Part shown: positions 1,147 through 12,381 of the stretch, piece by piece
Layout of the letters: every line of letters begins with the position of its first letter
How positions within the stretch are numbered: position 1 is the first letter of the stretch
Assembly (NCBI GenBank): GCA_016839635.1
Contig: JAEOTV010000124.1
Location: forward strand, 1-12,381
DNA: 12,381 nucleotides
Origin: Promethearchaeota archaeon
GTDB taxonomy: Archaea > Asgardarchaeota > Lokiarchaeia > Sigynarchaeales > SOKP01
Direction of reading: 5' to 3'
Notes under the pieces: generated by a model
Database searches by the model: none
Told to the model about the DNA's origin: nothing
What the model saw: only the letters and a program-made list of their open reading frames with translations
Translations under genes and position numbers: made by a program

Positions 1147-2085
1147 TTAGATAGTCAAATTAGTAATATGCTCCCTAAGGGCACTTTCTAATCTAATCAT
1201 AGCGTCAATCATTTTATCCTGCAATTCATTCCAATAATCTTCATCATTTAATCCATAATCACTAATTCTCCAGCTTATACGACATGCTCTCTTCCCTTCA
1301 ATACGATCCCAGATTAAACTTCCCTTAAAATCACGTTCTATTAATTCCTTTTTTGAATGAAGTTGATTATAAATTTCTTCATTAACGCTTTCTTTCTCTT
1401 TTCCTTTATCAATATATAATTCTGCCATACCTTCATGTTGTCTAATTACATAATTATAAGATAAACCTGATTTTCCTGCACCAGTACCAATCCAACTATA
1501 TTTACCTGGTTTAATAGTTGAGTGAAGTTTTGTTTTTAAACTAGCTTTATCTAGTAATTGCGTCCAAAATTCTAACCTTTTATAATGTCTCTCAGCATAA
1601 TCTCGTTTAATTTTTCCAATTTCCTTTGCCTCATCGCTGGGGCCACATATTATTGAAAATTTAGGAGCAGGGGGTGAATCTTCTATCGAATATGCTTCTA
1701 CTTTAATCAAGTAAAAAGTTGTTTCTGGTGTAGTGTTTTCATTTAACCAATTTATAGCTTTCTTATGTTCTGGTCGTGCTTCCCTACAAATCCAAATTGC
1801 AGATTTTGCTTCTAGATTTGTCATATAGGTTAAAACTTTACCTAAATGGTCATGGTTTGTTTTTTCGAGTTGATTTTCAATAATAATTTTATTACCATCT
1901 TCATCTTCTGCGAGCAAATCAACATTAAATATCCCAACGGGTTTTTCACGCTCACTAATGTTCAAGTTGATGTCTAATTCTTCATTCAAGAAATCTATAT
2001 TATTTTCAAGCCATGGTGTAAACTCTAATGCTTCATTTTTCCATAATTCACGTAGAGGTAATTTCTTTAATTTACTAATTCTCAT
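1147..2085 (-). CDS. DUF4268 family protein with PD-(D/E)XK-like N-terminus
   Basis: The 312-residue product fits the DUF4268 layout. The N-terminal part (about residues 45-130) looks like a PD-(D/E)XK nuclease fold: an aspartate at D56 in FNVDLLAED, then IIIENQ with E70 and Q72, then a conserved-looking NHDHLGKVLTYM stretch. The pattern D...E-x-Q, with glutamine instead of lysine, is familiar in this family as I know it. The C-terminal DUF4268 part spans about residues 165-310 and includes a tryptophan-rich segment around YSWIG and WRISDYG. Members are often found near restriction or defence genes, but no substrate is established here. ATG at 2085 is the natural start because a stop codon in the same frame lies directly before it (2086-2088). 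By eye the gene looks somewhat richer in G+C than the 721-residue gene next door, which could mean a separate origin. It is divergent from the large plus-strand cluster. Confidence 0.85.
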   Translation of the reverse strand: MRISKLKKLPLRELWKNEALEFTPWLENNIDFLNEELDINLNISEREKPVGIFNVDLLAEDEDGNKIIIENQLEKTNHDHLGKVLTYMTNLEAKSAIWICREARPEHKKAINWLNENTTPETTFYLIKVEAYSIEDSPPAPKFSIICGPSDEAKEIGKIKRDYAERHYKRLEFWTQLLDKASLKTKLHSTIKPGKYSWIGTGAGKSGLSYNYVIRQHEGMAELYIDKGKEKESVNEEIYNQLHSKKELIERDFKGSLIWDRIEGKRACRISWRISDYGLNDEDYWNELQDKMIDAMIRLESALREHITNLTI

Positions 2086-2088
2086 TTA

Positions 2089-2244
2089 AATTACATGTTC
2101 AATTAAAAAATATTGTTTAATAATCAAACTGAGTATATTTTTCTTTATTAAAAAGGATTTATCAATTTCTAATATTTGTTCTTTATTTTTATCAGGTTTA
2201 AAATCTAATCTAACAATTCCTACTTCAAAATGGATTTTTAAAGA
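2089..2244 (-). pseudogene. Possible remnant of a coding frame upstream of DUF4268 gene
   Basis: On the minus strand 52 codons stay open and end with TAA at 2086-2088, directly before the ATG of the DUF4268 gene. The translation reads like protein (for example FEVGIVRLDFKPDKNKEQIL), but it has no ATG, GTG or TTG start before a late TTG and is closed upstream by a stop. A short open stretch in another frame (through about 2300) could be joined to it by one frameshift. It may be the decayed 3' end of a lost gene that preceded the DUF4268 gene, or chance in A+T-rich DNA. Confidence 0.25.
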
Positions 2245-2362
2245 TTAAAGTGTTGAAAATTTCTAATTCCTATTTTATATAAAGATATGGCGGTTATTTC
2301 ATTTACTTAAAATTTAAAGCTCAAATTTAAATTACTGAAATTGTACTATTATTTTATATAGT

Positions 2363-2379
2363 GATTCTTATAGAGAATC
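2363..2379. promoter_or_regulatory. Inverted repeat next to TATA box, candidate operator
   Basis: GATTCT-TATAG-AGAATC is a perfect six-base inverted repeat with a five-base spacer. It directly abuts the TATA box (2380-2389) of the plus-strand cluster, covering the position where TFB would bind. A dimeric regulator bound here could block initiation. Candidate regulators nearby are the winged-helix proteins at 8041-8646 and 8795-9445; the link is inference. Confidence 0.4.
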
Positions 2380-2389
2380 TTATATATAA
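2380..2389 (+). promoter_or_regulatory. Archaeal TATA box for the 721-residue gene
   Basis: TTATATATAA is centred about 31 bases before the ATG at 2416. Archaeal transcription normally starts about 25-27 bases beyond the TATA box, so the message would have a leader of only a few bases. This agrees with the absence of a Shine-Dalgarno sequence before this ATG. Confidence 0.55.
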
Positions 2390-2415
2390 AAAGATTTGAA
2401 ATTTCTTGAAAAGTT

Positions 2416-4581
2416 ATGGAGAAGGGCAACATAATACAAAGGAAATTCTTTTTAGGTGTTATTCCAGATGATTATTTAAAGGGTATTTTAAAGAAAAAGA
2501 TAAAATCTAGAGAAGAATTAAAGAAGTTATTAGAAAATTTTTTTAAAAAAAAAATAAAAAATCCTGAGAATAAACTAAAAAATTTATCACATTCAAAATT
2601 GACAGATCTTTTTATTCAATTTAATTTATTAACTATAGAAGAAGAAAAACATTACTTTCTCCAATTTAGAGATAGTAAAGATCCAATTTTTTATTTATTT
2701 AAAATTCAAAAAAATTTTATTAATGATTTGAATAAAATTAAAGAAAAAATTGATAATTTTTTTGAGATTAATAAATTGGATATAAATTACAAATTCTCTG
2801 ATAACTACAAAACTCAAGAAATCATAAATAATTACATCTATAATTATAAAGATTTTGAATTAATCGATTATAAATTGGATCAAGATAACGAAATTTTAGA
2901 ATTAAGTTTTGAATATTTAGAAAGAATAAATTATCTTAAAAAAGAATATATACCCAGTTTTGTTTATAATTTAAGAAGTGGTTTTTTATGGTTAGATAGA
3001 AATAATCAATTAATTATTATAAAATGTCATGATTATAATATAGTTAAAGCAATTATTTCTGCTTTAGGTACGTTATTTAATTCTAAATACTATAAATTTA
3101 ATTTACAACAAAGTATTGTTGATAAGATTTTTGATAAAAAAGAAATTGTAAAAAATGTATTAAAGTCAGATAAATATATCAATCCTGATCTAATAGAATC
3201 AGTGGTTGTAAGGGATAAAGATTATGCTGAAAAATCAAAAGATCCAAAATACAAAGTTCTTTCAGAGTATCAAAGGAAATCAGGTAGCTATTTAACTAAT
3301 ATTAAGGGTTTCTCTAAAAAGACTAAAATAGATGTAATCGAATCGGGTAAGATATCACTTACAGGAAAAGCGATAAAATTGGATAAATGTCGAGAATGGT
3401 TGATAGTTATATTACTCAAAATCATTAAAATTCAAGAAAACTTATTAAAAATTGGTGATATTGATAGTTATATTAAATCTAGTGATTTTATTGAAAGAAC
3501 AAATTTATATAAGAAAGTAAATAATCAAAAAGCGAGGAAAAAAATATCAGAATTAATAAATAAGATTACTATCTTAAAAACAAATCCTACTTTAAATTAT
3601 GTTGATTTCAGTTTTTCTTTAGGAATTTCATTTTATTTTGATGAATTTTTAATACCACTCGTAGATTTAAGATGTTCTAATGATGAATGTGATACAAGTG
3701 TAATATGTCCAAATAATAAATGTAAATCAATTGAATTTGAAATTAAAAAAAATATTACAAAAAGAACTGTTGAATTAAAATGCAGGTATTGTAATAATGA
3801 AATTAAAGTAGACACAGAACTTGAATGTGTTGATGGTCATGCAAATAAATTAGATTTAAGTGAATCAATATTTTTCATTTTTCAACCCTCATTAAAAATG
3901 GAATTAAATAATATCTTAAATGGATTAAAATTGAGTTATGAAATTCAAGACGAGAAAGAAACATTTTATATAAAGGAAAATAAATTATATAGAAAAAAAT
4001 TTAAAGGTAAGATTGTCTATCACTGGGAGGAATTGCCCATATTTAAAGAAATTCCAAAAATAGATGAACTAAAAAATGAGATTCAAAAACAGCAGGTAAT
4101 AAATATAAAAACAATATTAGAAAAGTGTAGTAATCGAACAAATAAATGTAGAGCTTGTCAGATTTATAAAGCTGATGAAAAAATTTGCCTCTTAAGAATT
4201 TTTGCTAAATTATCTGGAGGTCAAGCTCATCCTCATAGTGGAGATGAATTTGGTGATTTTGAATTTCCTCAAAATTTTCCAGAAGGAAGAGAATTAATAA
4301 TAGGCATAGCTAAAAGCTTCAAAAAACCTCCAAAAAGAAGAACACAGCTCTTATACGATGAACCTTTTGATATTTTAACATTTAAAAAAAATGATAATTT
4401 ATTAGAACAATTTTTTCAGTTATCTAACAATGATACAATTCATTTCATTATGGTTGTATCAGGGCGATTAATTGATTCAAGATTAAAAGCAGCTCTAATA
4501 GAAATTGCTAAATGGAAAAGTAAAAAAATTGTCATAATTGAACCTAAAGATCTAATTCCAATATTCTCAGCTTATTTTTAA
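2416..4581 (+). CDS. Zinc-cluster protein with putative restriction-endonuclease-like C-terminus
   Basis: The 721-residue product belongs to no family I can name. Residues 1-330 are lysine- and asparagine-rich and probably alpha/beta without clear motifs. Two cysteine clusters follow. The first is C420, C425, C431, C436 plus C456, C459, C471 and H475, enough for two zinc sites. The second is C571, C578, C581, C591. The last 120 residues resemble a PD-(D/E)XK fold: HSGDEFGDFEF gives D614 (with E611 and E616 nearby), a beta strand follows (ELIIGIAK) ending in K633, and the tail MVVSGRLIDSRLKAALIEIAKW...IVIIEP looks like the C-terminal core of Mrr-type restriction endonucleases. The usual acidic residue before the lysine is replaced by isoleucine (I631), so activity is uncertain. 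A T7A10 tract at 2538-2554 lies within codons 41-47. The gene is first in the plus-strand cluster. The nuclease assignment is moderate; the zinc sites are well supported. Confidence 0.8.
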   Translation: MEKGNIIQRKFFLGVIPDDYLKGILKKKIKSREELKKLLENFFKKKIKNPENKLKNLSHSKLTDLFIQFNLLTIEEEKHYFLQFRDSKDPIFYLFKIQKNFINDLNKIKEKIDNFFEINKLDINYKFSDNYKTQEIINNYIYNYKDFELIDYKLDQDNEILELSFEYLERINYLKKEYIPSFVYNLRSGFLWLDRNNQLIIIKCHDYNIVKAIISALGTLFNSKYYKFNLQQSIVDKIFDKKEIVKNVLKSDKYINPDLIESVVVRDKDYAEKSKDPKYKVLSEYQRKSGSYLTNIKGFSKKTKIDVIESGKISLTGKAIKLDKCREWLIVILLKIIKIQENLLKIGDIDSYIKSSDFIERTNLYKKVNNQKARKKISELINKITILKTNPTLNYVDFSFSLGISFYFDEFLIPLVDLRCSNDECDTSVICPNNKCKSIEFEIKKNITKRTVELKCRYCNNEIKVDTELECVDGHANKLDLSESIFFIFQPSLKMELNNILNGLKLSYEIQDEKETFYIKENKLYRKKFKGKIVYHWEELPIFKEIPKIDELKNEIQKQQVINIKTILEKCSNRTNKCRACQIYKADEKICLLRIFAKLSGGQAHPHSGDEFGDFEFPQNFPEGRELIIGIAKSFKKPPKRRTQLLYDEPFDILTFKKNDNLLEQFFQLSNNDTIHFIMVVSGRLIDSRLKAALIEIAKWKSKKIVIIEPKDLIPIFSAYF

Positions 4582-4732: not shown

Positions 4733-4897
4733 ATGGATTATGAAAAAATTACTGATAAATTAATTCGAGATGTTTTGATAGACTTTAAATTGGATAAAGT
4801 TTATCAAGAATTTTTAGATTCGCTCATTAAATTTGGTGATTTTAAGAATTTAGCTAATAAAGATTTCCAAAAATATTTGGATAATATTGAAATTTAG
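4733..4897 (+). CDS. 54-residue ORF before the ATPase-RNase gene
   Basis: The ORF runs from ATG at 4733 to TAG at 4895-4897 and encodes a mixed-charge, probably all-helical product (starts MDYEKITDKLIRDVL, ends KYLDNIEI). It ends 19 bases before the ATG of the ATPase-RNase gene, so the two would be co-transcribed. The spacing of hydrophobic residues (leucine, isoleucine and phenylalanine every three to four positions) fits amphipathic helices more than random sequence. No Shine-Dalgarno sequence precedes the ATG; a TTG at 4724 is an alternative start. I recognise no family. Its place suggests a partner or inhibitor of the large protein, such as an antitoxin-like subunit, but that is inference. 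It may also be the surviving end of a decayed gene. Confidence 0.5.
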   Translation: MDYEKITDKLIRDVLIDFKLDKVYQEFLDSLIKFGDFKNLANKDFQKYLDNIEI

Positions 4898-4916
4898 TAG
4901 GTTAAGAAAATAAAAA

Positions 4917-7900
4917 ATGGAAGCAAAATTAAATCAAAATCTAGCAATTGAACTTAATACTCAAGGGAGGAACACTATTCCATATATTGATTATGGTAAT
5001 ATTATAACAATTCATGGAAAAAATGGTGTTGGAAAATCAATGGCAGCAACACTCCTTGAAATTGCTTCAGGTAATTATATATTTGAAAGTGAAAGCAGAT
5101 TTAAGAAGCTGGCAGGAGTTATCGATTCTTGTGAAATTCAATTTAAGATAGAAGATAATCTTCTGTATAAAACAATCTTAAAACCTCACCTTTGGAGCTT
5201 TGACAAAAATTTAAATGGAGTAAATCCACTTACTCTTGGAAAATTCTATAAGGTGGATAAAAACAGGGAAAAAGAAATTGATTTTGAAGAATTTAGAAAG
5301 GACATCTATATTAGAACAATACGAGGTAATGAAAGCTTAGAGCAACAAATCTTTTTCTTTAAAGATATTTTTACTGCAAAAATTAGTCAAAAACTTAAGC
5401 AATTAGATGATAAAATTGATTTTTTAGAAAAATATCTAAATTTGCTTAACCTTAATGAACTAGAAAAAATTTCAGATGGATATATTCAACTACAGCAAAA
5501 GCATAACGACGAGCTAAATAAAATTAACAACTTTGAGAATAGCATAAGAAATAGAAGAGCAAATATAAAAAATATTGAGGAAAAGCTAAAAATTTTACAA
5601 CAACTCATAAAATCAACTGGTAATGACCTAGAAACTCTAAAAAAGAATAAAAAAGTAGAAGAGGATAAACTTTCAAAAATTAAAACAGAGCTAGAAAAGA
5701 AGTATAAAGAATTATCAAATATTAAGCTGAAAAAGGATGAGTTAACAACTTTACTTGATAAGAAAACTAAAGAAACTTTTAAAAATCTCAATAAACTCAG
5801 AAATGCAAAAGAAAATTTGGAAAAGCAATTGATTTCTAAATATAAATTACATCTGGATAAAAAAAAAAGTATAAAAAGCGATATTAAAGAAATTAAAGAT
5901 AATATCGGGAATTATCAAAATAAAATAAAAAGTTATAAATTAGAAATAGAGAAATTAAATAAAAACAATGAGAGCATAATTGAAATTAATAAATATTTAA
6001 CTCAACTCAGAGATATTTGCAGTAAAGCAAGTTCCCATGATTTTGGGAAAGATAAGTTAATTAAAGCAACAACCGATAAAGAAAGTTTTGTTTCTTTTTC
6101 TTTCGAAGAATTATATAAGATTTTTCATGAGAATAATATTGAATTTAAACAAGATAAGGAGCTAAAAGAGTACCAAAGTAAAGTTGAGAATTATAATGAA
6201 GAGATAAATGAAAATAGAAAGAAGTTAAATGCGTTAAAAGAATACAGTAAAATTTTAGAAAAAACTTCCCAAATAGAAGCAGATCTTAAAGGAAAAGGTT
6301 CAACAATAGACAGTTTTATAGATATAAATACACAATTTGAATCATTAGACAAAAAACGTATTAATCAAGAGACATTTATTAAAAATTTGGATAAGGAAAT
6401 TTTAGAAATTAATCAAAAAGTTCAGGAATTAGACAATTTTATCAAAGAATTGGAAACTATGCCCACTCAAACGTCCTTACTAAAAGAATTAGAGAAGATG
6501 GGGATCAAAATAGATAAAAACGGATTAATAGAGGATATATGTAAGCAACAATGCCTTGAAATTCAGAAAGAAGTCAATAATCGTCAAGTTGAACTAAAAG
6601 CCATGGTGGATGATCAAAATGTAACCAAGCAGAGATTGGGAATAACTAGGGAAGCTTTAGATAAGGCTACAAAAGTTATAAAAAATTATGTTAAAGATTT
6701 TGGCTATACTCAAATAGGTGAATTTTTAGATTATTTAAAACCTCATATGGAAAAATTTCATAGGTATATAGAAAACACAAAAAAACTTTATAGTCGCTTA
6801 AAGATACTAAAAGATGATATTGAAAAAGTAATAAATGGGATAAAACCAAAAAATGAAACACATTTAAAAATAATTAATATTGAATTTGATAATATCTTTA
6901 AAAGATTATATGAGAAAAATGAATTTTTTGAATATGTTTTCAAAAATTATTCAAAAATTAAAAAATTTGATATTATCAATAGAACAATAATATTCAATAC
7001 ACTTGAAGGCCTGGAAGAGAGTCGAGATTTAGAAGAATTTTCAAGTGGTGAAAAAACTTATGCTTATTGTCGTTCGATTATATCAATGACAGCAAATATA
7101 GCAAAATATAATATTATTATCTTAGATGAGTCATATGCTTTACTTGATCGTGAACATAGTAAAAATTTATATCAATTTCAAAAGCAAATGGTTCAAGAAA
7201 AAGGAATCACAAAATTTATTAATATACTTCCATTGAAAGAAAATCTGGATGATTTAATCAATTCAGTAGAAAAAAATCTGAAACAAGAAGAGAAATATCC
7301 AGATTCTGAAAATCTTATACATCTCAAACATCAGCTAAATATTCTTAAATCCTTTCAGGAAGAAGTTTCCTCAAAACATTATTATCAAGAAATTAATTAC
7401 CCTGATGAATTAAGAAAAGAAATAAATGTTAGTTCTGGGATAATTCAAAATTCTAGTTTAACTATGCTCCTAACTGATTCTTCAGAAAAAGAACTTCTTT
7501 TTTCTTTTATATTAGATGGTTCAAATATAGCTCGTCACAATCGTGGATCAGAAAAGGCACATATTCGAGATGTGTTAAAATGCAAAAAGAAACTTGAAAA
7601 TTTAGGAGTTCCTGAAAACAGCATCTTCATTGTTTTTGGTGCGGGATTAAGACATTACATTCCGGAAAGAGATAAAACATTATATGAAAGTTTGCTTACT
7701 TTAGAAACTGTTAATCAGGCTCCAGCAGAGAGAGATGATGATTGGTTTATAATTAAATTTGCTATGGATCATGATTCATATATAATAACAAATGATAGAT
7801 ACTTGAATTATAGAGAAAAATCATTATCTTATGAAGAATTTATTAAATCTCACTCAATTCACTATAGTATAATAGGAAATGATATTATCTTTGATGAAGG

Positions 7901-7952
7901 GTTTAGAGAAAAAATTAAATCAATAATGACTTCAAAAAATAAAAACAAATAA
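4917..7952 (+). CDS. SMC/Rad50-like ATPase fused to Zc3h12a-type NYN ribonuclease
   Basis: The 1011-residue product has a split ABC-type ATPase head. Walker A is GKNGVGKS (34-41). The ABC signature is FSSGEK (708-713), Walker B is IIILDE (733-738) and the D-loop is LLDREH (742-747). Between the half-heads lies long coiled coil (about 155-365 and 415-515), broken at about 366-412 and 515-548, where a hinge could sit. There is a C-x3-C (C542, C546) but no Rad50 zinc hook (CxxC). After a linker, residues 863-1005 match the Zc3h12a-like NYN (PIN-like) ribonuclease pattern: LDGSN with D867, a DDD cluster at 940-942 in QAPAERDDDWFIIKFAMD, and ITNDRY with N959 and D960. All the acidic residues expected for a metal-dependent RNase are present. 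Known ATPase-gated RNases such as PrrC and RloC suggest an abortive defence role, but they use a different nuclease domain. Domain calls are strong; the biological role is inferred. Confidence 0.9.
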   Translation: MEAKLNQNLAIELNTQGRNTIPYIDYGNIITIHGKNGVGKSMAATLLEIASGNYIFESESRFKKLAGVIDSCEIQFKIEDNLLYKTILKPHLWSFDKNLNGVNPLTLGKFYKVDKNREKEIDFEEFRKDIYIRTIRGNESLEQQIFFFKDIFTAKISQKLKQLDDKIDFLEKYLNLLNLNELEKISDGYIQLQQKHNDELNKINNFENSIRNRRANIKNIEEKLKILQQLIKSTGNDLETLKKNKKVEEDKLSKIKTELEKKYKELSNIKLKKDELTTLLDKKTKETFKNLNKLRNAKENLEKQLISKYKLHLDKKKSIKSDIKEIKDNIGNYQNKIKSYKLEIEKLNKNNESIIEINKYLTQLRDICSKASSHDFGKDKLIKATTDKESFVSFSFEELYKIFHENNIEFKQDKELKEYQSKVENYNEEINENRKKLNALKEYSKILEKTSQIEADLKGKGSTIDSFIDINTQFESLDKKRINQETFIKNLDKEILEINQKVQELDNFIKELETMPTQTSLLKELEKMGIKIDKNGLIEDICKQQCLEIQKEVNNRQVELKAMVDDQNVTKQRLGITREALDKATKVIKNYVKDFGYTQIGEFLDYLKPHMEKFHRYIENTKKLYSRLKILKDDIEKVINGIKPKNETHLKIINIEFDNIFKRLYEKNEFFEYVFKNYSKIKKFDIINRTIIFNTLEGLEESRDLEEFSSGEKTYAYCRSIISMTANIAKYNIIILDESYALLDREHSKNLYQFQKQMVQEKGITKFINILPLKENLDDLINSVEKNLKQEEKYPDSENLIHLKHQLNILKSFQEEVSSKHYYQEINYPDELRKEINVSSGIIQNSSLTMLLTDSSEKELLFSFILDGSNIARHNRGSEKAHIRDVLKCKKKLENLGVPENSIFIVFGAGLRHYIPERDKTLYESLLTLETVNQAPAERDDDWFIIKFAMDHDSYIITNDRYLNYREKSLSYEEFIKSHSIHYSIIGNDIIFDEGFREKIKSIMTSKNKNK

Positions 7953-7996
7953 ATTAAAAAAGGCTATAATAGAATTAATTTTATTTAATCATAAAA

Positions 7997-8044
7997 ATGA
8001 GCATAATACGCGATTCAGTATACTTGAAGGAATTAAAATTTTGA
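7997..8044 (+). CDS. 15-codon upstream ORF overlapping the next start
   Basis: ATG at 7997 opens a frame encoding MSIIRDSVYLKELKF and stops with TGA at 8042-8044, overlapping the TTG start codon at 8041. A TATA-like CTATAAT (7964-7970) lies about 30 bases before the ATG. The Shine-Dalgarno sequence for the TTG (GAAGGA, 8026-8031) sits inside this frame. It could couple translation to the following gene or be chance. Confidence 0.25.
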   Translation: MSIIRDSVYLKELKF

Positions 8045-8646
8045 ATATTATTAAATCAATTATATTAGAATTTGGACCTTGTGCCAAGCTGGAGATACTT
8101 GATTATTTGAGATCTGACTTATTTTATAAAAAAGGTAATTATTCTCCTATAGAGTGGACTCGTTCTAAAATCCAATATCAATTAAAAAAGATATCTCAAA
8201 AAGATAAAAACATTTTCAAATTTAAAAGTAATAATGGTTTTAAAGTTCGCTATGGTATATCAAAATTCAAGTATTATTCATTAAAGGAGCCAAGATATAT
8301 AAGAGTAAAAGGCTATATAAGGCGATGCATGTTTTGTGGGATGCCTATGTATGTTTATGATTCAGAAATATTTCATTTTAAATATAAATGTAAACATTAT
8401 GAAGAACAAAAATGTTTTGAATTATTGAAGTTAAATACATTTTGGGCGATAATCTCCCCAAACTATGTCCATGGGATACTTGATGATTTACAGTCTGGCA
8501 CAATTAGATTACCAGGAACGAATCAAAATAAATCAAATAGACAAATTCATTCAGAATTATGGTTGATAAATGAAAAGGCACGAGAAAAAGAAATTATTGA
8601 GACAGATCGCTTGCTACCCATTAAAGCTGAAGAATTTATTGTTTAA
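8041..8646 (+). CDS. Winged-helix protein with zinc-binding cluster
   Basis: The 201-residue product starts with a probable winged helix-turn-helix (about residues 1-80: NIIKSIILEFGPCAKLEILDYL, then SKIQYQLKKI as a likely recognition helix). It continues into a zinc-binding segment with C96, C99 (CMFC), H112, C117, H119 and C125. The C-terminal helix-rich part (130-201) has no known motif. The start is TTG at 8041, supported by GAAGGA nine bases upstream; the frame is open further upstream to 7930 but offers no ATG, GTG or TTG. The gene follows the ATPase-RNase by 88 bases and probably belongs to the same unit. A DNA-binding regulator or a nucleic-acid recognition subunit of the module is the likely role; the precise target is unknown. 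A T-rich tract follows its stop codon. Confidence 0.7.
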   Translation: MNIIKSIILEFGPCAKLEILDYLRSDLFYKKGNYSPIEWTRSKIQYQLKKISQKDKNIFKFKSNNGFKVRYGISKFKYYSLKEPRYIRVKGYIRRCMFCGMPMYVYDSEIFHFKYKCKHYEEQKCFELLKLNTFWAIISPNYVHGILDDLQSGTIRLPGTNQNKSNRQIHSELWLINEKAREKEIIETDRLLPIKAEEFIV

Positions 8647-8794: not shown

Positions 8795-9445
8795 ATGACG
8801 AGTAATTTAACAGAAATTAAAGGAATTGGAGATTCAATCTTAAAAAAGTTGAAAAAAGCGAATATAAAAAATCTCGATGATTTAGCAAAGTCAACAATTG
8901 ATTATCTGACTAAAATAGATGGTGTTGGAGAGAAGTCTGCTAAAAAATGGATTTTCGCTGCTAAAGAGTTTTTAAATTCTCATGGCATTTCTAAAAAGAT
9001 TAAAGTTAAAGATTATGCATTAGAACAGAAGGTTGAAACTAAAGCTATGGTATTTTCTGAAGAAATTTATTCAATTCAATCGGAAATAAAAAAAATACAT
9101 AATAGAATAGATAATATGGATTATCGTTTAAAAAATATTGAGAATAATTTTTATAAATCAAAAAATATAGAAAAATCGATTCCTAAAATTACAGAAGAAC
9201 ATTTTTTAAGGACTTTAAGAGTTGTGTATGATTCTTTAGAAAAAAAAATTGAAAATTTTGTTCCTATTTCTGCTTTAACTGAAAAGCTTAAAGAATACAT
9301 CCCATGGTCGACTGAAAAAATTCATTCTGAAATATATAAATTATTCATGAATTATAAGGTAGATTTACAACCAGGTAAAAGATTTGATGGGAAACCACTA
9401 GTTCAGGATGGAAGAAAGTTTGTATGGTTTAAATTTAAATCTTAA
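8795..9445 (+). CDS. Helix-hairpin-helix DNA-binding protein with coiled coil
   Basis: The 216-residue product begins with a double helix-hairpin-helix domain (about residues 5-62). Hairpin glycines are visible in IKGIGDSIL and IDGVGEKSAKKW, a pattern that binds the DNA backbone without sequence preference and is common in repair and nuclease-associated proteins. A coiled coil follows (about 85-120, EIYSIQSEIKKIHNRID). The C-terminal part (about 130-216) looks like a winged-helix domain ending in a beta-rich wing (KPLVQDGRKFVWFKFK). The gene ends 24 bases before the AAA+ nuclease gene, which has its own Shine-Dalgarno sequence, so the pair is an operon. The likely job is to bring or orient the partner nuclease on DNA, perhaps recognising structure rather than sequence. 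Domain assignment is firm for the hairpins and weaker for the C-terminus. Confidence 0.8.
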   Translation: MTSNLTEIKGIGDSILKKLKKANIKNLDDLAKSTIDYLTKIDGVGEKSAKKWIFAAKEFLNSHGISKKIKVKDYALEQKVETKAMVFSEEIYSIQSEIKKIHNRIDNMDYRLKNIENNFYKSKNIEKSIPKITEEHFLRTLRVVYDSLEKKIENFVPISALTEKLKEYIPWSTEKIHSEIYKLFMNYKVDLQPGKRFDGKPLVQDGRKFVWFKFKS

Positions 9446-9456
9446 AAAGATAAATT

Positions 9457-9462
9457 AAGAGG
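9457..9462 (+). promoter_or_regulatory. Shine-Dalgarno sequence for the AAA+ nuclease gene
   Basis: AAGAGG lies seven bases before the ATG at 9470, in the 24-base gap after the HhH gene. It fixes this ATG as the start and supports co-transcription of the pair. Confidence 0.6.
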
Positions 9463-9469
9463 CTTAAAA

Positions 9470-11701
9470 ATGGTTTTGAATGATTTCGGTGAATATAAAG
9501 GTTGGTTCAAAAAATGTAAAGGAAACCTATTGAACTCTGAATATTTAAATCCATTTCCTAGACCTCCTATTGCTGTTAATCTTTATAATAATCCTCCCAT
9601 ATTTTGTTACGGAAGAGATGAGTATATAGAAGAAATATTAAATGAAGTTAAGGACAGCATTAAAAATCCTGAACCAAATTTAATAAGAATAATCGGAAAA
9701 CAAGGAATTGGAAAATCAACAGTAATCTGTTGGGTAATGAAAGAATTAGAAGAAATATATGATGTCCCAATTGTATACTTAGAAACAAGCGCTCAGCCTG
9801 AAGATTTCAATATGAAATCGCTATATAGGCAAATAATTTCTATAATAGAAAAGAGAGATATCCTTAATAAGCTTATCTTTAATAGTATAAGTAAATTCAT
9901 AAAAGCCTTTAAAGATGCGGGAGGAAGACTTTATAAGGAAATTTCAGAGAAATTTTCGGGTGAAGAAATTGAATACTTAATCAATAATTCTGAGTTTATA
10001 AAAAATAAGATACAAGATCCAAGTTTTAATCAAAAGTTTTTTGACTTATTAAAGAACAATATTATCCTAATAAAAGATTACATCCCAGTAGATCCTAATT
10101 TTTTATTGATTTTCTGGAAATCACATGTCCAAAATCCAGAAATAATTAAAACTTCTAACGCTTTTAGAGGAAATATGTCCTATGAGGGGTATAATATAGA
10201 AACAGATTATGATGCATCCAATTCTATAGATGAGTTAATTAATTTTAATCGGTGGTTATTTAACAATGAAACAGTGTTTGTTTTAATATTTGATCATTTA
10301 GAAGCGGGAATCTCTGAACAAAAAGAAGGTGTTTATTCTAATCTATTCTCCCTTCTTTTAAATTTAAGACATAAGAAATATTTAACTATAATAATTTCTG
10401 GTACTTTAGATGCATATAGTGCTTTTGATGAAATACTTCAAGAAGATCAAAAATTACAACTAGATAATTGGTCAAAAACAATTGCGTTAACAACTTTAAA
10501 GCCAGATAATGTAATTCGAATAGTAAATGAATATTTATCTATTTTTTGGAATAAATTTAATTTTCAACCTCCTCCGAAAAATGCATTATTCCCATTTGGA
10601 GAAAAAAGTATTAAATATTTGTATGAAAATAATGGTTTAGATTTACGTAAAACGTTAAAAAATCTATATGAACTCATTGAAAAATATAGATATGAAAAAG
10701 AATTAGAATATGTTGATGACTTTTTTAAGGCATTCAAAACTTTTAGAAAAAGAGAAGACGTAGCTCTCTCTTTTATAGAGCAACAAGAATTAGTTAAAAA
10801 ATTAATGGATAAATCTATTCAAGATAAAAATCGATCAACTTTAGTTGAGATGGCATTATATCAATTTTTTGATATAGTAAGGAGTCACCCTGATTATAAG
10901 TATCTTACAGATGTTAAACATGAACCCCCCTTAGGAAGATCGGAAAAAAGACCAGATGTATTTCTAGAATTTTTTGGTAATGAGGGACAACAATATGTTA
11001 AAAAATTAGGTATTGAAGTAAAAATGTATCGCAAAACTGATAAAATCTCAAAAGGAGATATCAATAAAACATATATTCTATTAAAAGAAAATGCTTTAGA
11101 TTATGTCACATGGATATCCAATGTCCCCTTGGATATTAAATATAGATATAGTTCAATTTCAAAAGAATTAACAAAACATATTGGTAGAATAAGTCCGTTG
11201 GATGATCTAGAATTAGCATATATTGCATTTATGGTATATTTTAATGAAATATATGGTAGAGACCCTAAGATAGAGGAAATTGAGTTTACTCTTAATAAGA
11301 TCGATTTAAATCCATTAAATATGAGAGAGAAACTGAAAAGTTTACCAAAGTTAACTGAAATTGAACTTCCAAAACCTTCAATAGAAATTACTTCATTTTT
11401 GAAACCTGAAGAAATTATCATTAAAACTCCTATAAGGGATAATTCTATTAAACCTAGAAAACCACCTAAAGTAGCCGTTGAAATAGGACAAGAAGAAATA
11501 AAATTAGAAGTTGAAAAATATATTAAAAGTAAATCTAGGACAAATCAGCAAATAACAAGTCATTATACGATCAAAGCAATTCAAAACGCTTTAAATCTTA
11601 AAGATCAAGATACAAAATTGGATGAAGAGATATGGGCAATTGCACTTAATATTTCTAAAAGTTATGGATTTAAACATTCTCCAAAAACAATCTATTTTTG
11701 A
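9470..11701 (+). CDS. AAA+ ATPase fused to PD-(D/E)XK nuclease
   Basis: The 743-residue product has an N-terminal AAA+ ATPase of ORC/STAND-like type. A GRDE motif (48-51) precedes Walker A GKQGIGKST (76-84). Walker B is VFVLIFDHLE (269-278, D275) and a sensor-like strand IIISGTLDA follows (307-315). The usual second acidic residue after D275 is histidine, with glutamate two residues on. About 455-555 is a canonical PD-(D/E)XK nuclease: a helix MALYQFFDIV, then RPDVFLEF (P495, D496), then GIEVKMYR (E516, K518), with a following helix and strand (DYVTWISN). All catalytic residues expected for DNA cleavage are present. The C-terminal 70 residues may form a winged-helix domain. Its close partner is the HhH protein upstream. 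An NTP-controlled DNA nuclease of a defence or repair system is the natural reading. ATPase and nuclease calls are strong; the family name is not known to me. Confidence 0.88.
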   Translation: MVLNDFGEYKGWFKKCKGNLLNSEYLNPFPRPPIAVNLYNNPPIFCYGRDEYIEEILNEVKDSIKNPEPNLIRIIGKQGIGKSTVICWVMKELEEIYDVPIVYLETSAQPEDFNMKSLYRQIISIIEKRDILNKLIFNSISKFIKAFKDAGGRLYKEISEKFSGEEIEYLINNSEFIKNKIQDPSFNQKFFDLLKNNIILIKDYIPVDPNFLLIFWKSHVQNPEIIKTSNAFRGNMSYEGYNIETDYDASNSIDELINFNRWLFNNETVFVLIFDHLEAGISEQKEGVYSNLFSLLLNLRHKKYLTIIISGTLDAYSAFDEILQEDQKLQLDNWSKTIALTTLKPDNVIRIVNEYLSIFWNKFNFQPPPKNALFPFGEKSIKYLYENNGLDLRKTLKNLYELIEKYRYEKELEYVDDFFKAFKTFRKREDVALSFIEQQELVKKLMDKSIQDKNRSTLVEMALYQFFDIVRSHPDYKYLTDVKHEPPLGRSEKRPDVFLEFFGNEGQQYVKKLGIEVKMYRKTDKISKGDINKTYILLKENALDYVTWISNVPLDIKYRYSSISKELTKHIGRISPLDDLELAYIAFMVYFNEIYGRDPKIEEIEFTLNKIDLNPLNMREKLKSLPKLTEIELPKPSIEITSFLKPEEIIIKTPIRDNSIKPRKPPKVAVEIGQEEIKLEVEKYIKSKSRTNQQITSHYTIKAIQNALNLKDQDTKLDEEIWAIALNISKSYGFKHSPKTIYF

Positions 11702-11705
11702 ATAT

Positions 11706-11729
11706 AATTCTAAACAAATACTTAGAATT
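11706..11729 (+). terminator. Hairpin after the AAA+ nuclease gene
   Basis: AATTCTAA pairs perfectly with TTAGAATT across an eight-base loop, beginning four bases after the stop codon. T-rich sequence follows (TATTTCTTCTT, about 11738-11750). It is a good candidate for ending the cluster transcript. Confidence 0.5.
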
Positions 11730-11779
11730 CCTCCATATTATTTCTTCTTAAATTTTATAAAGAAAATCTTTAATTATAT

Positions 11780-11793
11780 AATTGTTAACAATT
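11780..11793. promoter_or_regulatory. 14-base perfect palindrome upstream of NurA-like gene
   Basis: AATTGTTAACAATT is a perfect palindrome about 25 bases before the TATA box at 11817-11828, a position where activators or repressors often bind in archaea. Because it is A+T-rich, chance remains possible. Confidence 0.3.
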
Positions 11794-11816
11794 TTGTTTA
11801 ATCAAATCATAATTCA

Positions 11817-11828
11817 AAAATATATTTT
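11817..11828 (+). promoter_or_regulatory. TATA box for the NurA-like gene
   Basis: AAAATATATTTT is centred about 25 bases before the ATG at 11847, with no Shine-Dalgarno sequence between. This spacing predicts a leaderless message beginning at or near the ATG. Confidence 0.5.
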
Positions 11829-11846
11829 GCACGGTTGATATAATTT

Positions 11847-12381
11847 ATGGAGCCCCAAATCAATTTCGATTTAAATCAAATCCAAAATATTGATGAAACT
11901 GTTCAAACTCAAGTTGAAAAATTTCAAAGTATAAGAGATTTAGTAAAAAATCTAAAGTTTGTACCAATTGACCCTATTGGAACCTATAGTTCAGTTACTT
12001 ATAAATCTATAGATGGCGGAAAAATGGGGATTTACTTTGATCCATTTGAGCTAGATTATATTGTTATTGCTGATTCTTTTGGAAATGAATTAATGAAATT
12101 TCTTGTGCCGAAAGGTAAAGAATTAGAAACAGCAGATTTCATTTTTATGGATGAATTTTCGATTATTCAAAAGTTTTTATACCTTTTAGGGTTGAAATCG
12201 GTATCTCAAAGCTCTGGAATTTTAAAAAGTTCTAAGATTGCTATGGAAATTGCTGAAATTGCTTCCATTTTTGAAAGATTAACAAGACATAAAAATGAAC
12301 CATTAATTATAATGAAAGATGGTTTATTAAGAACAATTGCGTTAAAACAAGAACACATTGAAAGATTAATATCTATTTTAA
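11847..12381 (+). CDS. NurA-like nuclease, 3' end outside the window
   Basis: An open frame runs from ATG 11847 to the window edge; 178 residues are visible. It resembles the NurA domain, an RNase H-like metal-dependent nuclease that works with the HerA helicase in archaeal DNA end resection and in several HerA-associated defence systems. Visible landmarks are YKSIDGGKMG with D56 (the usual position of the VDGS motif), then a beta strand pair (YIVIADSFGNEL), the helix MEIAEIASIFERL with E137, and IIMKDGLLRT with D158 (the usual DGSL motif). The serine after DG is glycine at the first site and missing at the second, so this is a diverged member. Typical NurA proteins have about 330-450 residues, so roughly half is missing here. 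It has its own promoter and is set apart from the preceding cluster by a hairpin. A HerA-type ATPase may follow downstream. Confidence 0.7.
   Translation, partial: MEPQINFDLNQIQNIDETVQTQVEKFQSIRDLVKNLKFVPIDPIGTYSSVTYKSIDGGKMGIYFDPFELDYIVIADSFGNELMKFLVPKGKELETADFIFMDEFSIIQKFLYLLGLKSVSQSSGILKSSKIAMEIAEIASIFERLTRHKNEPLIIMKDGLLRTIALKQEHIERLISIL

What the first reader, a model, noticed from the sequence alone, without database searches (positions are those of the whole stretch)
4917..7952. SMC/Rad50-type ATPase carrying a C-terminal Zc3h12a-like NYN ribonuclease
One protein combines a full split ABC head (GKNGVGKS, FSSGEK, IIILDE), long coiled coil, and an intact NYN RNase site (D867, D940-942, N959/D960). 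Zc3h12a-type domains are best known from eukaryotic Regnase-like RNases. I know of no described system with exactly this fusion. By analogy with PrrC and RloC, the ATPase could sense DNA ends or invading nucleoprotein and unleash RNA cleavage.
Basis: partly seen in the sequence, partly recalled or inferred. Interest (0 to 1): 0.85.

Follow-up and report, generated by a model that had tools for sequence, protein, structure and literature searches.

The report
Asgard SMC ATPase fused to RNase
A family of proteins from Asgard archaea joins a DNA-repair-like motor to an RNA-cutting domain of the kind used in animal immunity; it travels with two small partner genes and in several genomes sits among antiviral genes, so it is probably an immune device, though this has not been tested in the laboratory here.

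Summary

A head search finds SMC-NYN in 3 of 227 genomes of a Lokiarchaeota genome's phylum. Neighbours: PDC-S11 and type I-D CRISPR-Cas (G099); NurA-HerA, with viperin, cyclase and CARF about 20 kb off (G103); PDC-S11 and an Orc/Cdc6-like gene (window). A fourth, truncated locus shows no defence genes.

Most likely an RloC-like sensor-effector: the ATPase recognises invader DNA and releases RNA cleavage. It is not RloC (no CxxC hook, no anticodon nuclease) and not a standard Lamassu (effector fused, Walker-B Glu kept). Activity, trigger and target are untested.

The parts
4733..4897 (+).
   Evidence: Homologous ORF at the same place upstream of SMC-NYN in G099 (63% id, E 9e-20) and G103 (59% over 51 aa, E 3e-17); changes concentrated at codon position 3, dN/dS 0.19 and 0.33 in the two pairs where dS could be computed; gaps to SMC-NYN 19, 28 and 14 nt
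4917..7952 (+). SMC/Rad50-like ATPase with C-terminal NYN RNase domain, 1011 aa
4917..5393 (+). N-terminal half of the ABC head (residues 1-159, Walker A at 34-41)
   Evidence: Model pLDDT mostly 83-94 here; Walker A conserved
5394..6833 (+). Antiparallel coiled coil with a small apex at about residues 373-412, no CxxC
   Evidence: Helices from 141 to 372 and 413 to 639 in the model; 0 of 41 rows contain CxxC anywhere, 40 of them covering the apex
6834..7433 (+). C-terminal half of the ABC head (signature, Walker B, D-loop)
   Evidence: FSSGEKTYAYCR and LDESYALLD invariant in 41 of 41 rows
7437..7490 (+). Disordered linker between head and NYN (residues 841-858)
   Evidence: pLDDT below 50
7494..7934 (+). 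Zc3h12a/Regnase-type NYN (PIN-like) RNase domain, residues 860-1006
8041..8646 (+). 201-aa partner: winged-helix-like N-terminus (my reading) and zinc-like cluster (C96, C99, H112, C117 invariant in 39 of 39 aligned rows)
   Evidence: 59 proteins found, the window's own included, 39 of them aligned; directly downstream of SMC-NYN in G099 and G103; model pLDDT 79, no confident fold match
1147..2085 (-). Neighbour: PDC-S11/DUF4268 candidate defence gene; also divergent and adjacent to the module in G099
   Evidence: PADLOC E 9.8e-129; G099 copy E 2e-91

Best explanation
The module 4733-8646 (54-aa protein, SMC-NYN, 201-aa protein) is an Asgard immune system of the sensor-effector kind. Shown here: the ATPase head motifs are complete and conserved, the RNase site is complete and conserved, a low-confidence (probably flexible) linker joins them, and two small genes accompany SMC-NYN in the three loci where both flanks could be read. 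Inferred: the SMC/Rad50-like ATPase dimer, helped by the 201-aa protein (winged-helix-like and zinc-like, so probably nucleic-acid binding), engages invader DNA such as ends or unusual structures; ATP-driven head closure brings the tethered NYN domains into an active arrangement, and they cut RNA, either the invader's transcripts or host RNAs in a growth-arrest response as RloC does with tRNA. The 54-aa protein most likely holds the complex in check or organises it.
Against: No functional data. G089's locus shows no PADLOC hit in 5 scanned neighbours; of 5 further G103 genes scanned, 4 had none (3 on the other flank and one 459-aa gene) and the coiled-coil protein only weak coiled-coil matches; the G103 NurA has no PADLOC match and the HNH protein only a weak one (0.0019). 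I had no within-genome null for defence-gene density, and Lokiarchaeales are reported rich in defence systems (5.8 per genome; PMC11291487 section 6). Genome completeness is not given, so absences are uncertain. Seven of 41 aligned rows lack the NYN domain, so the ATPase can do something without it. No relatives in viral contigs. The 201-aa protein matches no family and the 54-aa protein none in Pfam, so their roles are guesses.
Confidence: 0.6

Rival explanations
1. Housekeeping or stress role: an SMC/Rad50-like complex that clears RNA (R-loops, transcripts) at broken or stalled DNA, with no immune function.
For: The head is strongly conserved: 94 to 45% identity to the window over the 10 NYN-bearing rows compared. 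The G103 contig includes what looks like a NurA-HerA-Mre11-Rad50 run. G089's locus sits beside metabolic genes.
Against: Found in only 3 of 227 genomes by head search, which does not fit a core function, though completeness of these genomes is not given. G103 also encodes a separate Rad50-like protein and Mre11-type nuclease. Decayed or orphan pieces of the module occur.
Confidence: 0.2
2. A toxin-antitoxin-like or mobile-element maintenance module: SMC-NYN is an RNase toxin held by the 54-aa or 201-aa protein, acting mainly to keep an element in the cell.
For: A small conserved gene lies directly upstream with a 14-28 nt gap; patchy presence with remnants; the effector is an RNase by fold.
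Against: A 1011-aa toxin with a full ABC ATPase and long coiled coil would be unusual; no relatives in viral contigs (plasmid records were not searched); the 201-aa gene can persist without SMC-NYN (G101).
Confidence: 0.12
3. The NYN domain cuts invader DNA rather than RNA, so the protein is a fused SMC nuclease similar in outcome to Wadjet or Lamassu-Cap4.
For: SMC/Rad50 partners in known defence complexes are usually DNases, and PIN-like folds also occur in DNA nucleases (both recalled).
Against: The structural matches of the NYN part shown are MCPIP1/ZC3H12, KHNYN and protein-only RNase P, all known as RNases.
Confidence: 0.08

Closest known systems
RloC (ABC/Rad50-like ATPase with C-terminal anticodon nuclease)
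   Same: Order of parts: split ABC head with coiled-coil insert, then a C-terminal RNase in one polypeptide; RloC needs linear DNA for its nuclease (PMC3874168, abstract and section 18 read; PMC2610378, passages seen).
   Different: No CxxC zinc hook (0 of 41 rows); nuclease is NYN/PIN-like rather than the PrrC-type ACNase; two conserved small partner genes.
Lamassu (LmuA/LmuB/LmuC)
   Same: SMC/Rad50-like ATPase plus a small partner plus an effector; Lamassu LmuACB is among the Foldseek matches (9hqu_A, rank 47, E 5e-5).
   Different: Effector fused to the ATPase instead of a separate LmuA; Walker-B glutamate kept (41 of 41) where LmuB generally has Gln (PMC10586767, section 9 read); no convincing PADLOC LmuB match (E 0.29).
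Mre11-Rad50
   Same: Best Foldseek match of head and coil is fungal Rad50 (7zr1_C, E 4.6e-12).
   Different: No zinc hook, no Mre11 beside it, own nuclease domain; G103 has a separate Rad50-like protein and Mre11-type nuclease.
Regnase-1/ZC3H12A-C, KHNYN (eukaryotic NYN RNases)
   Same: NYN fold and active-site residues.
   Different: Fused to an SMC-type ATPase; no CCCH zinc finger or KH domain reported by Pfam.
Orc/Cdc6-REase-HerA 'capture' systems (PMC10853773, passages of section 22 seen)
   Same: Neighbouring genes in the window (Orc/Cdc6-like AAA+ protein with a nuclease-like motif, then a NurA-like gene) and the NurA-HerA pair beside SMC-NYN in G103 resemble these.
   Different: Nothing in the passages I saw describes SMC-NYN as part of them.

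Membership tests
Zc3h12a-type NYN RNases (PF11977) | Passes the family model's curated cut-off | tested here: met
   39.6 bits against cut-off 23, E 5.5e-10
Zc3h12a-type NYN RNases (PF11977) | NYN/PIN fold | tested here: met
Zc3h12a-type NYN RNases (PF11977) | Acidic metal-binding residues | tested here: met
   D867, N870, D941, D942, N959, D960 in 34 of 34 NYN-bearing rows
Zc3h12a-type NYN RNases (PF11977) | RNase activity | not testable with these tools
   Needs biochemistry
RloC | Split ABC head with coiled-coil insert followed by a C-terminal nuclease | tested here: met
RloC | CxxC zinc hook at the coiled-coil apex | tested here: not met
   0 of 41 rows contain CxxC; 40 of 41 cover the apex
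RloC | PrrC-type anticodon nuclease domain | tested here: not met
   C-terminal domain is NYN by sequence and by fold
RloC | Nuclease activated by linear DNA | not testable with these tools
   Needs biochemistry
Lamassu | LmuB-type ATPase | tested here: inconclusive
   PADLOC LmuB E 0.29 over residues 149-645; Foldseek 9hqu_A E 5e-5, below Rad50 and Smc5/6
Lamassu | Separate effector protein LmuA | tested here: not met
   The nuclease domain is in the ATPase chain in 34 of 41 rows; no LmuA match among 7 window proteins scanned
Lamassu | LmuC middle component | tested here: inconclusive
   201-aa protein: 0 PADLOC families at E <= 1 and no confident fold match; 54-aa protein not scanned with PADLOC
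Lamassu | Walker-B Glu to Gln (general in LmuB, not universal) | tested here: not met
   E738 in 41 of 41 rows
Mre11-Rad50 | Zinc hook CxxC | tested here: not met
   0 of 41 rows contain CxxC
Mre11-Rad50 | Mre11 partner encoded alongside | tested here: not met
   No metallophosphatase match among 8 window proteins scanned; in G103 the Mre11-type nuclease lies beside a different, Rad50-like gene
Wadjet/MksBEFG | JetA/B/D partners (kleisin, KITE, Toprim nuclease) | tested here: not met
   No JetA, JetB or JetD match among 7 window proteins scanned; JetC only over residues 158-376, E 0.0037. Genes beyond the window's end were not seen

The most novel reading that the evidence does not exclude
An undescribed Asgard three-gene immune system in which a DNA-structure-sensing SMC/Rad50-type motor directly gates a Regnase-type RNase, one of several Asgard conflict ATPases (BrxL-like, Mokosh-like, possibly an McrB-associated one) that use the same NYN effector. 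If so, Asgard immunity already used Regnase-type RNases as antiviral effectors, and the antiviral role of animal Regnase, N4BP1 and KHNYN (recalled) could have roots in this pool.
Probability: 0.3. Interest if true: 0.85.

Novelty: new variant of a known kind. Interest (0 to 1): 0.62.

Why it matters
It would add an RNA-cutting effector of the Regnase type to SMC/Rad50-based immunity, give Asgard archaea a candidate defence module that PADLOC does not name, and make a concrete test case for how a DNA-bound ATPase switches on an RNase in the same chain. That the same NYN family is also attached to a BrxL-like and a Mokosh-like protein points to a shared effector pool in the archaea nearest to eukaryotes.

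Tried and rejected
Rad50, RloC, Lamassu and Wadjet were each considered as the family name and rejected or left inconclusive (membership table). No whole genome is held for the window, so I worked from the phylum of the genome that holds L001.

Idea that the NYN-less relatives prove effector swapping: not supported as stated. They form one group (92/89 support), and head and NYN diverge in step in the most distant NYN-bearing rows (P0048 head 48%, NYN 45%; P0052, a partial row, 45% and 44%), so one old fusion with a later loss fits as well. The NYN of L001 falls inside the SMC-NYN group (97/82), so the domain has probably moved at least once; that protein's start is cut off by the contig end, so its architecture is unknown.

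The contig-length pairing of SMC-NYN and 201-aa proteins (19 of 51 clusters with a length, the window included) is a proxy and a lower bound: G103's pair is real but was not counted. None of P0030 and P0032-P0037 (7), of the 6 aligned NYN-less ones with a length, or of P0048 and P0052 was paired, so the 201-aa partner may belong to only part of the family. Searches of the 227 genomes scored a limited number of candidates per genome: 3 for the whole protein, up to 14 for the head, 4 for the 721-aa protein. Seven further genomes (E 1.7e-4 to 7.8e-4, 30-35% identity over short stretches) were left out as probable generic ATPase matches; I did not inspect them.

The origin of eukaryotic Regnase was not tested: no eukaryotic sequences were put in a tree.

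Full report

WHERE IT COMES FROM. Of the 52 proteins, 16 carry an organism name and all 16 are Asgard archaea (Lokiarchaeota, Promethearchaeota or Promethearchaeia, Harpocratesius, Sigynarchaeota; the last two lie in Promethearchaeati). The one hit among GTDB genome contigs, L001, is a Lokiarchaeota contig and matches only the NYN part (44%). In 227 genomes of the phylum of L001's genome, a search with the C-terminal head finds strong matches in 3 (G099, G103, G089; E 1.1e-62 or better) and 7 weak ones that I set aside. Completeness of these genomes is not given. The NYN part alone is common: 76 of 227 genomes match the whole query at E <= 0.001, nearly all there.

A THREE-GENE MODULE. Reading the spacer upstream of SMC-NYN showed a 54-codon ORF at 4733-4897. 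The same ORF lies 28 and 14 nt upstream of SMC-NYN in G099 (TTG start) and G103, 63 and 59% identical, with differences by codon position of 10/5/22 and 14/8/21 against the window over 50 codons, and dN/dS 0.19 and 0.33 (dS could not be computed for the third pair). In 227 genomes it is found in those two plus a truncated remnant in G115 (E 9e-4). Downstream, the 201-aa gene follows SMC-NYN in the window, G099 and G103 (gaps 88, 6 and 52 nt). Its alignment (39 of the 59) has C96, C99, H112 and C117 in 39 of 39 rows, which reads as a zinc site, and its first 54 residues model as helices in a winged-helix-like pattern; that reading is mine, since no confident fold match came back. It occurs without SMC-NYN in G101 and as a broken piece in G104. 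The truncated G089 locus (42% identical over the part held) has no 201-aa gene on the rest of its contig, and none was found in that genome.

NEIGHBOURHOOD. Window: PDC-S11 (E 9.8e-129) diverges from a 721-aa protein of no known family (only noise). After the module come a helix-hairpin-helix protein (8795-9445), an Orc1/Cdc6-like AAA+ protein (9470-11701; TIGR02928 E 1.8e-7) with an E-x-K nuclease-like motif at residues 516-518, and a gene running off the end at 11847 that is 58% identical to a Pfam-confirmed NurA in G103. G099: PDC-S11 diverges from the module as in the window; beyond it lie Cas6, Cas3d, Cas5d, Cas7d, Cas11d, Cas10d, Cas4 and two CARF proteins (I scanned 10 of the 14 ORFs of 90 aa or more listed, and all 10 hit). 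PDC-S11 itself is found in 16 of 227 genomes, two of them weakly, so its presence beside the module twice is suggestive, not decisive. G103: NurA, HerA, an HNH protein and a coiled-coil protein lie between 39.3 and 45.7 kb on the contig, with SMC-NYN at 46.6-49.7 kb. Further up, at 23.5-35.5 kb, are a cyclase, a viperin, a CARF protein and a NurA-HerA-Mre11-Rad50 run; NurA and HerA of that run are my reading and similarity, Mre11 and Rad50 are Pfam matches. The G103 NurA beside SMC-NYN has no PADLOC match and the HNH protein a weak one. The other flank of G103 is metabolic (3 scanned, 0 PADLOC hits). G089: 5 of the 7 other ORFs scanned, 0 PADLOC hits. So three of four contexts hold defence genes and one does not; no null for defence density was possible.

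HOW IT PROBABLY WORKS. The layout is that of RloC: an ABC head interrupted by a coiled coil, then an RNase. RloC's tRNase needs linear DNA, and its activity seems to depend on retaining the hydrolysed nucleotide (PMC3874168, abstract and section 18 read). By analogy, SMC-NYN would bind DNA of an invader, close its heads with ATP, and free or pair the tethered NYN domains; Regnase is known to act as a dimer (recalled). The 201-aa protein is a plausible nucleic-acid-binding partner and the 54-aa protein a plausible inhibitor or assembly factor. Shown: parts, conservation, linkage. Inferred: trigger, substrate, order of events, biological role.

AGAINST KNOWN SYSTEMS. It lacks the CxxC hook of RloC and Rad50 (0 of 41 rows) and the anticodon nuclease of RloC. 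It differs from Lamassu in having the effector fused and a kept Walker-B glutamate; a review says LmuB generally has glutamine there and that many but not all LmuB have a zinc hook (PMC10586767, section 9 read). PADLOC gives no convincing match for the protein. The Asgard defence survey by Leao et al. (PMC11291487: outline with abstract, section 6 and a term search seen) lists RloC among systems more frequent in Asgards, and its main text has no occurrence of SMC or NYN; its supplements could not be read here. The archaeal survey PMC12988326 was seen only as passages. PMC10853773 was seen as passages; its one NYN mention is a reference title.

RELATED FUSIONS. I read 14 other NYN proteins out of 15 loci tried and scanned 4 of these and the L001 protein with Pfam. 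One is a BrxL-like protein ending in an NYN domain (L014; BrxL PADLOC E 1.3e-154, NYN E 1.3e-17). One is an SF1 helicase resembling MkoA of Mokosh with an NYN domain (L013). L001 carries an NYN protein (E 9.1e-18) near an McrB-like AAA gene. In the NYN tree of 49 rows SMC-NYN domains group together except that L001 falls inside them; several of the other rows are long branches, so only the main grouping should be trusted.

VERDICT. The sequence observation is confirmed and extended. The defence reading is the best supported (0.6) but untested. It is a new variant of a known kind: an SMC/Rad50-type sensor coupled to a nuclease effector, here with a Regnase-type RNase in the same chain and two conserved small partners.

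Noticed in passing
L014:1-1929 (G053): A BrxL-like Lon-type protein (PADLOC BrxL 1.3e-154) ends in a Zc3h12a NYN domain (Pfam 1.3e-17) that looks intact: a BrxL-NYN fusion.
   Followed up: partly
L013:985-3363 minus strand (G088): SF1 helicase resembling Mokosh MkoA (1.1e-66) followed by an NYN domain (2.6e-9) in one long ORF that continues beyond the fetched stretch.
   Followed up: partly
window 8795-12380: Helix-hairpin-helix protein, Orc1/Cdc6-like AAA+ protein with an E-x-K nuclease-like motif, and a NurA-like gene: looks like a second candidate defence system of the Orc/Cdc6-HerA kind. G101 has NurA, HerA and an AAA gene with a part 24% identical to the window's on one contig.
   Followed up: partly
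L066:7830-10550 (G085): 906-aa ORF matching NurA near its start and then HerA at 53% identity: looks like a shortened NurA fused to HerA, with a Cas6-like gene nearby by eye.
   Followed up: no
window 2416-4581: 721-aa protein with two cysteine-rich stretches and no match in Pfam, PADLOC or PHROGs and only noise in NCBIfam; partial matches in 4 of 227 genomes, some broken.
   Followed up: partly
L001:3-842 and 1489-3849: An NYN protein whose domain groups inside the SMC-NYN clade lies near an McrB-like AAA gene with DUF4357; its N-terminus is cut off by the contig end.
   Followed up: partly
L052:6547-18464 (G103): Cyclase, viperin and CARF genes directly precede what looks like a NurA-HerA-Mre11-Rad50 run, mixing immune and repair genes.
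   Followed up: partly
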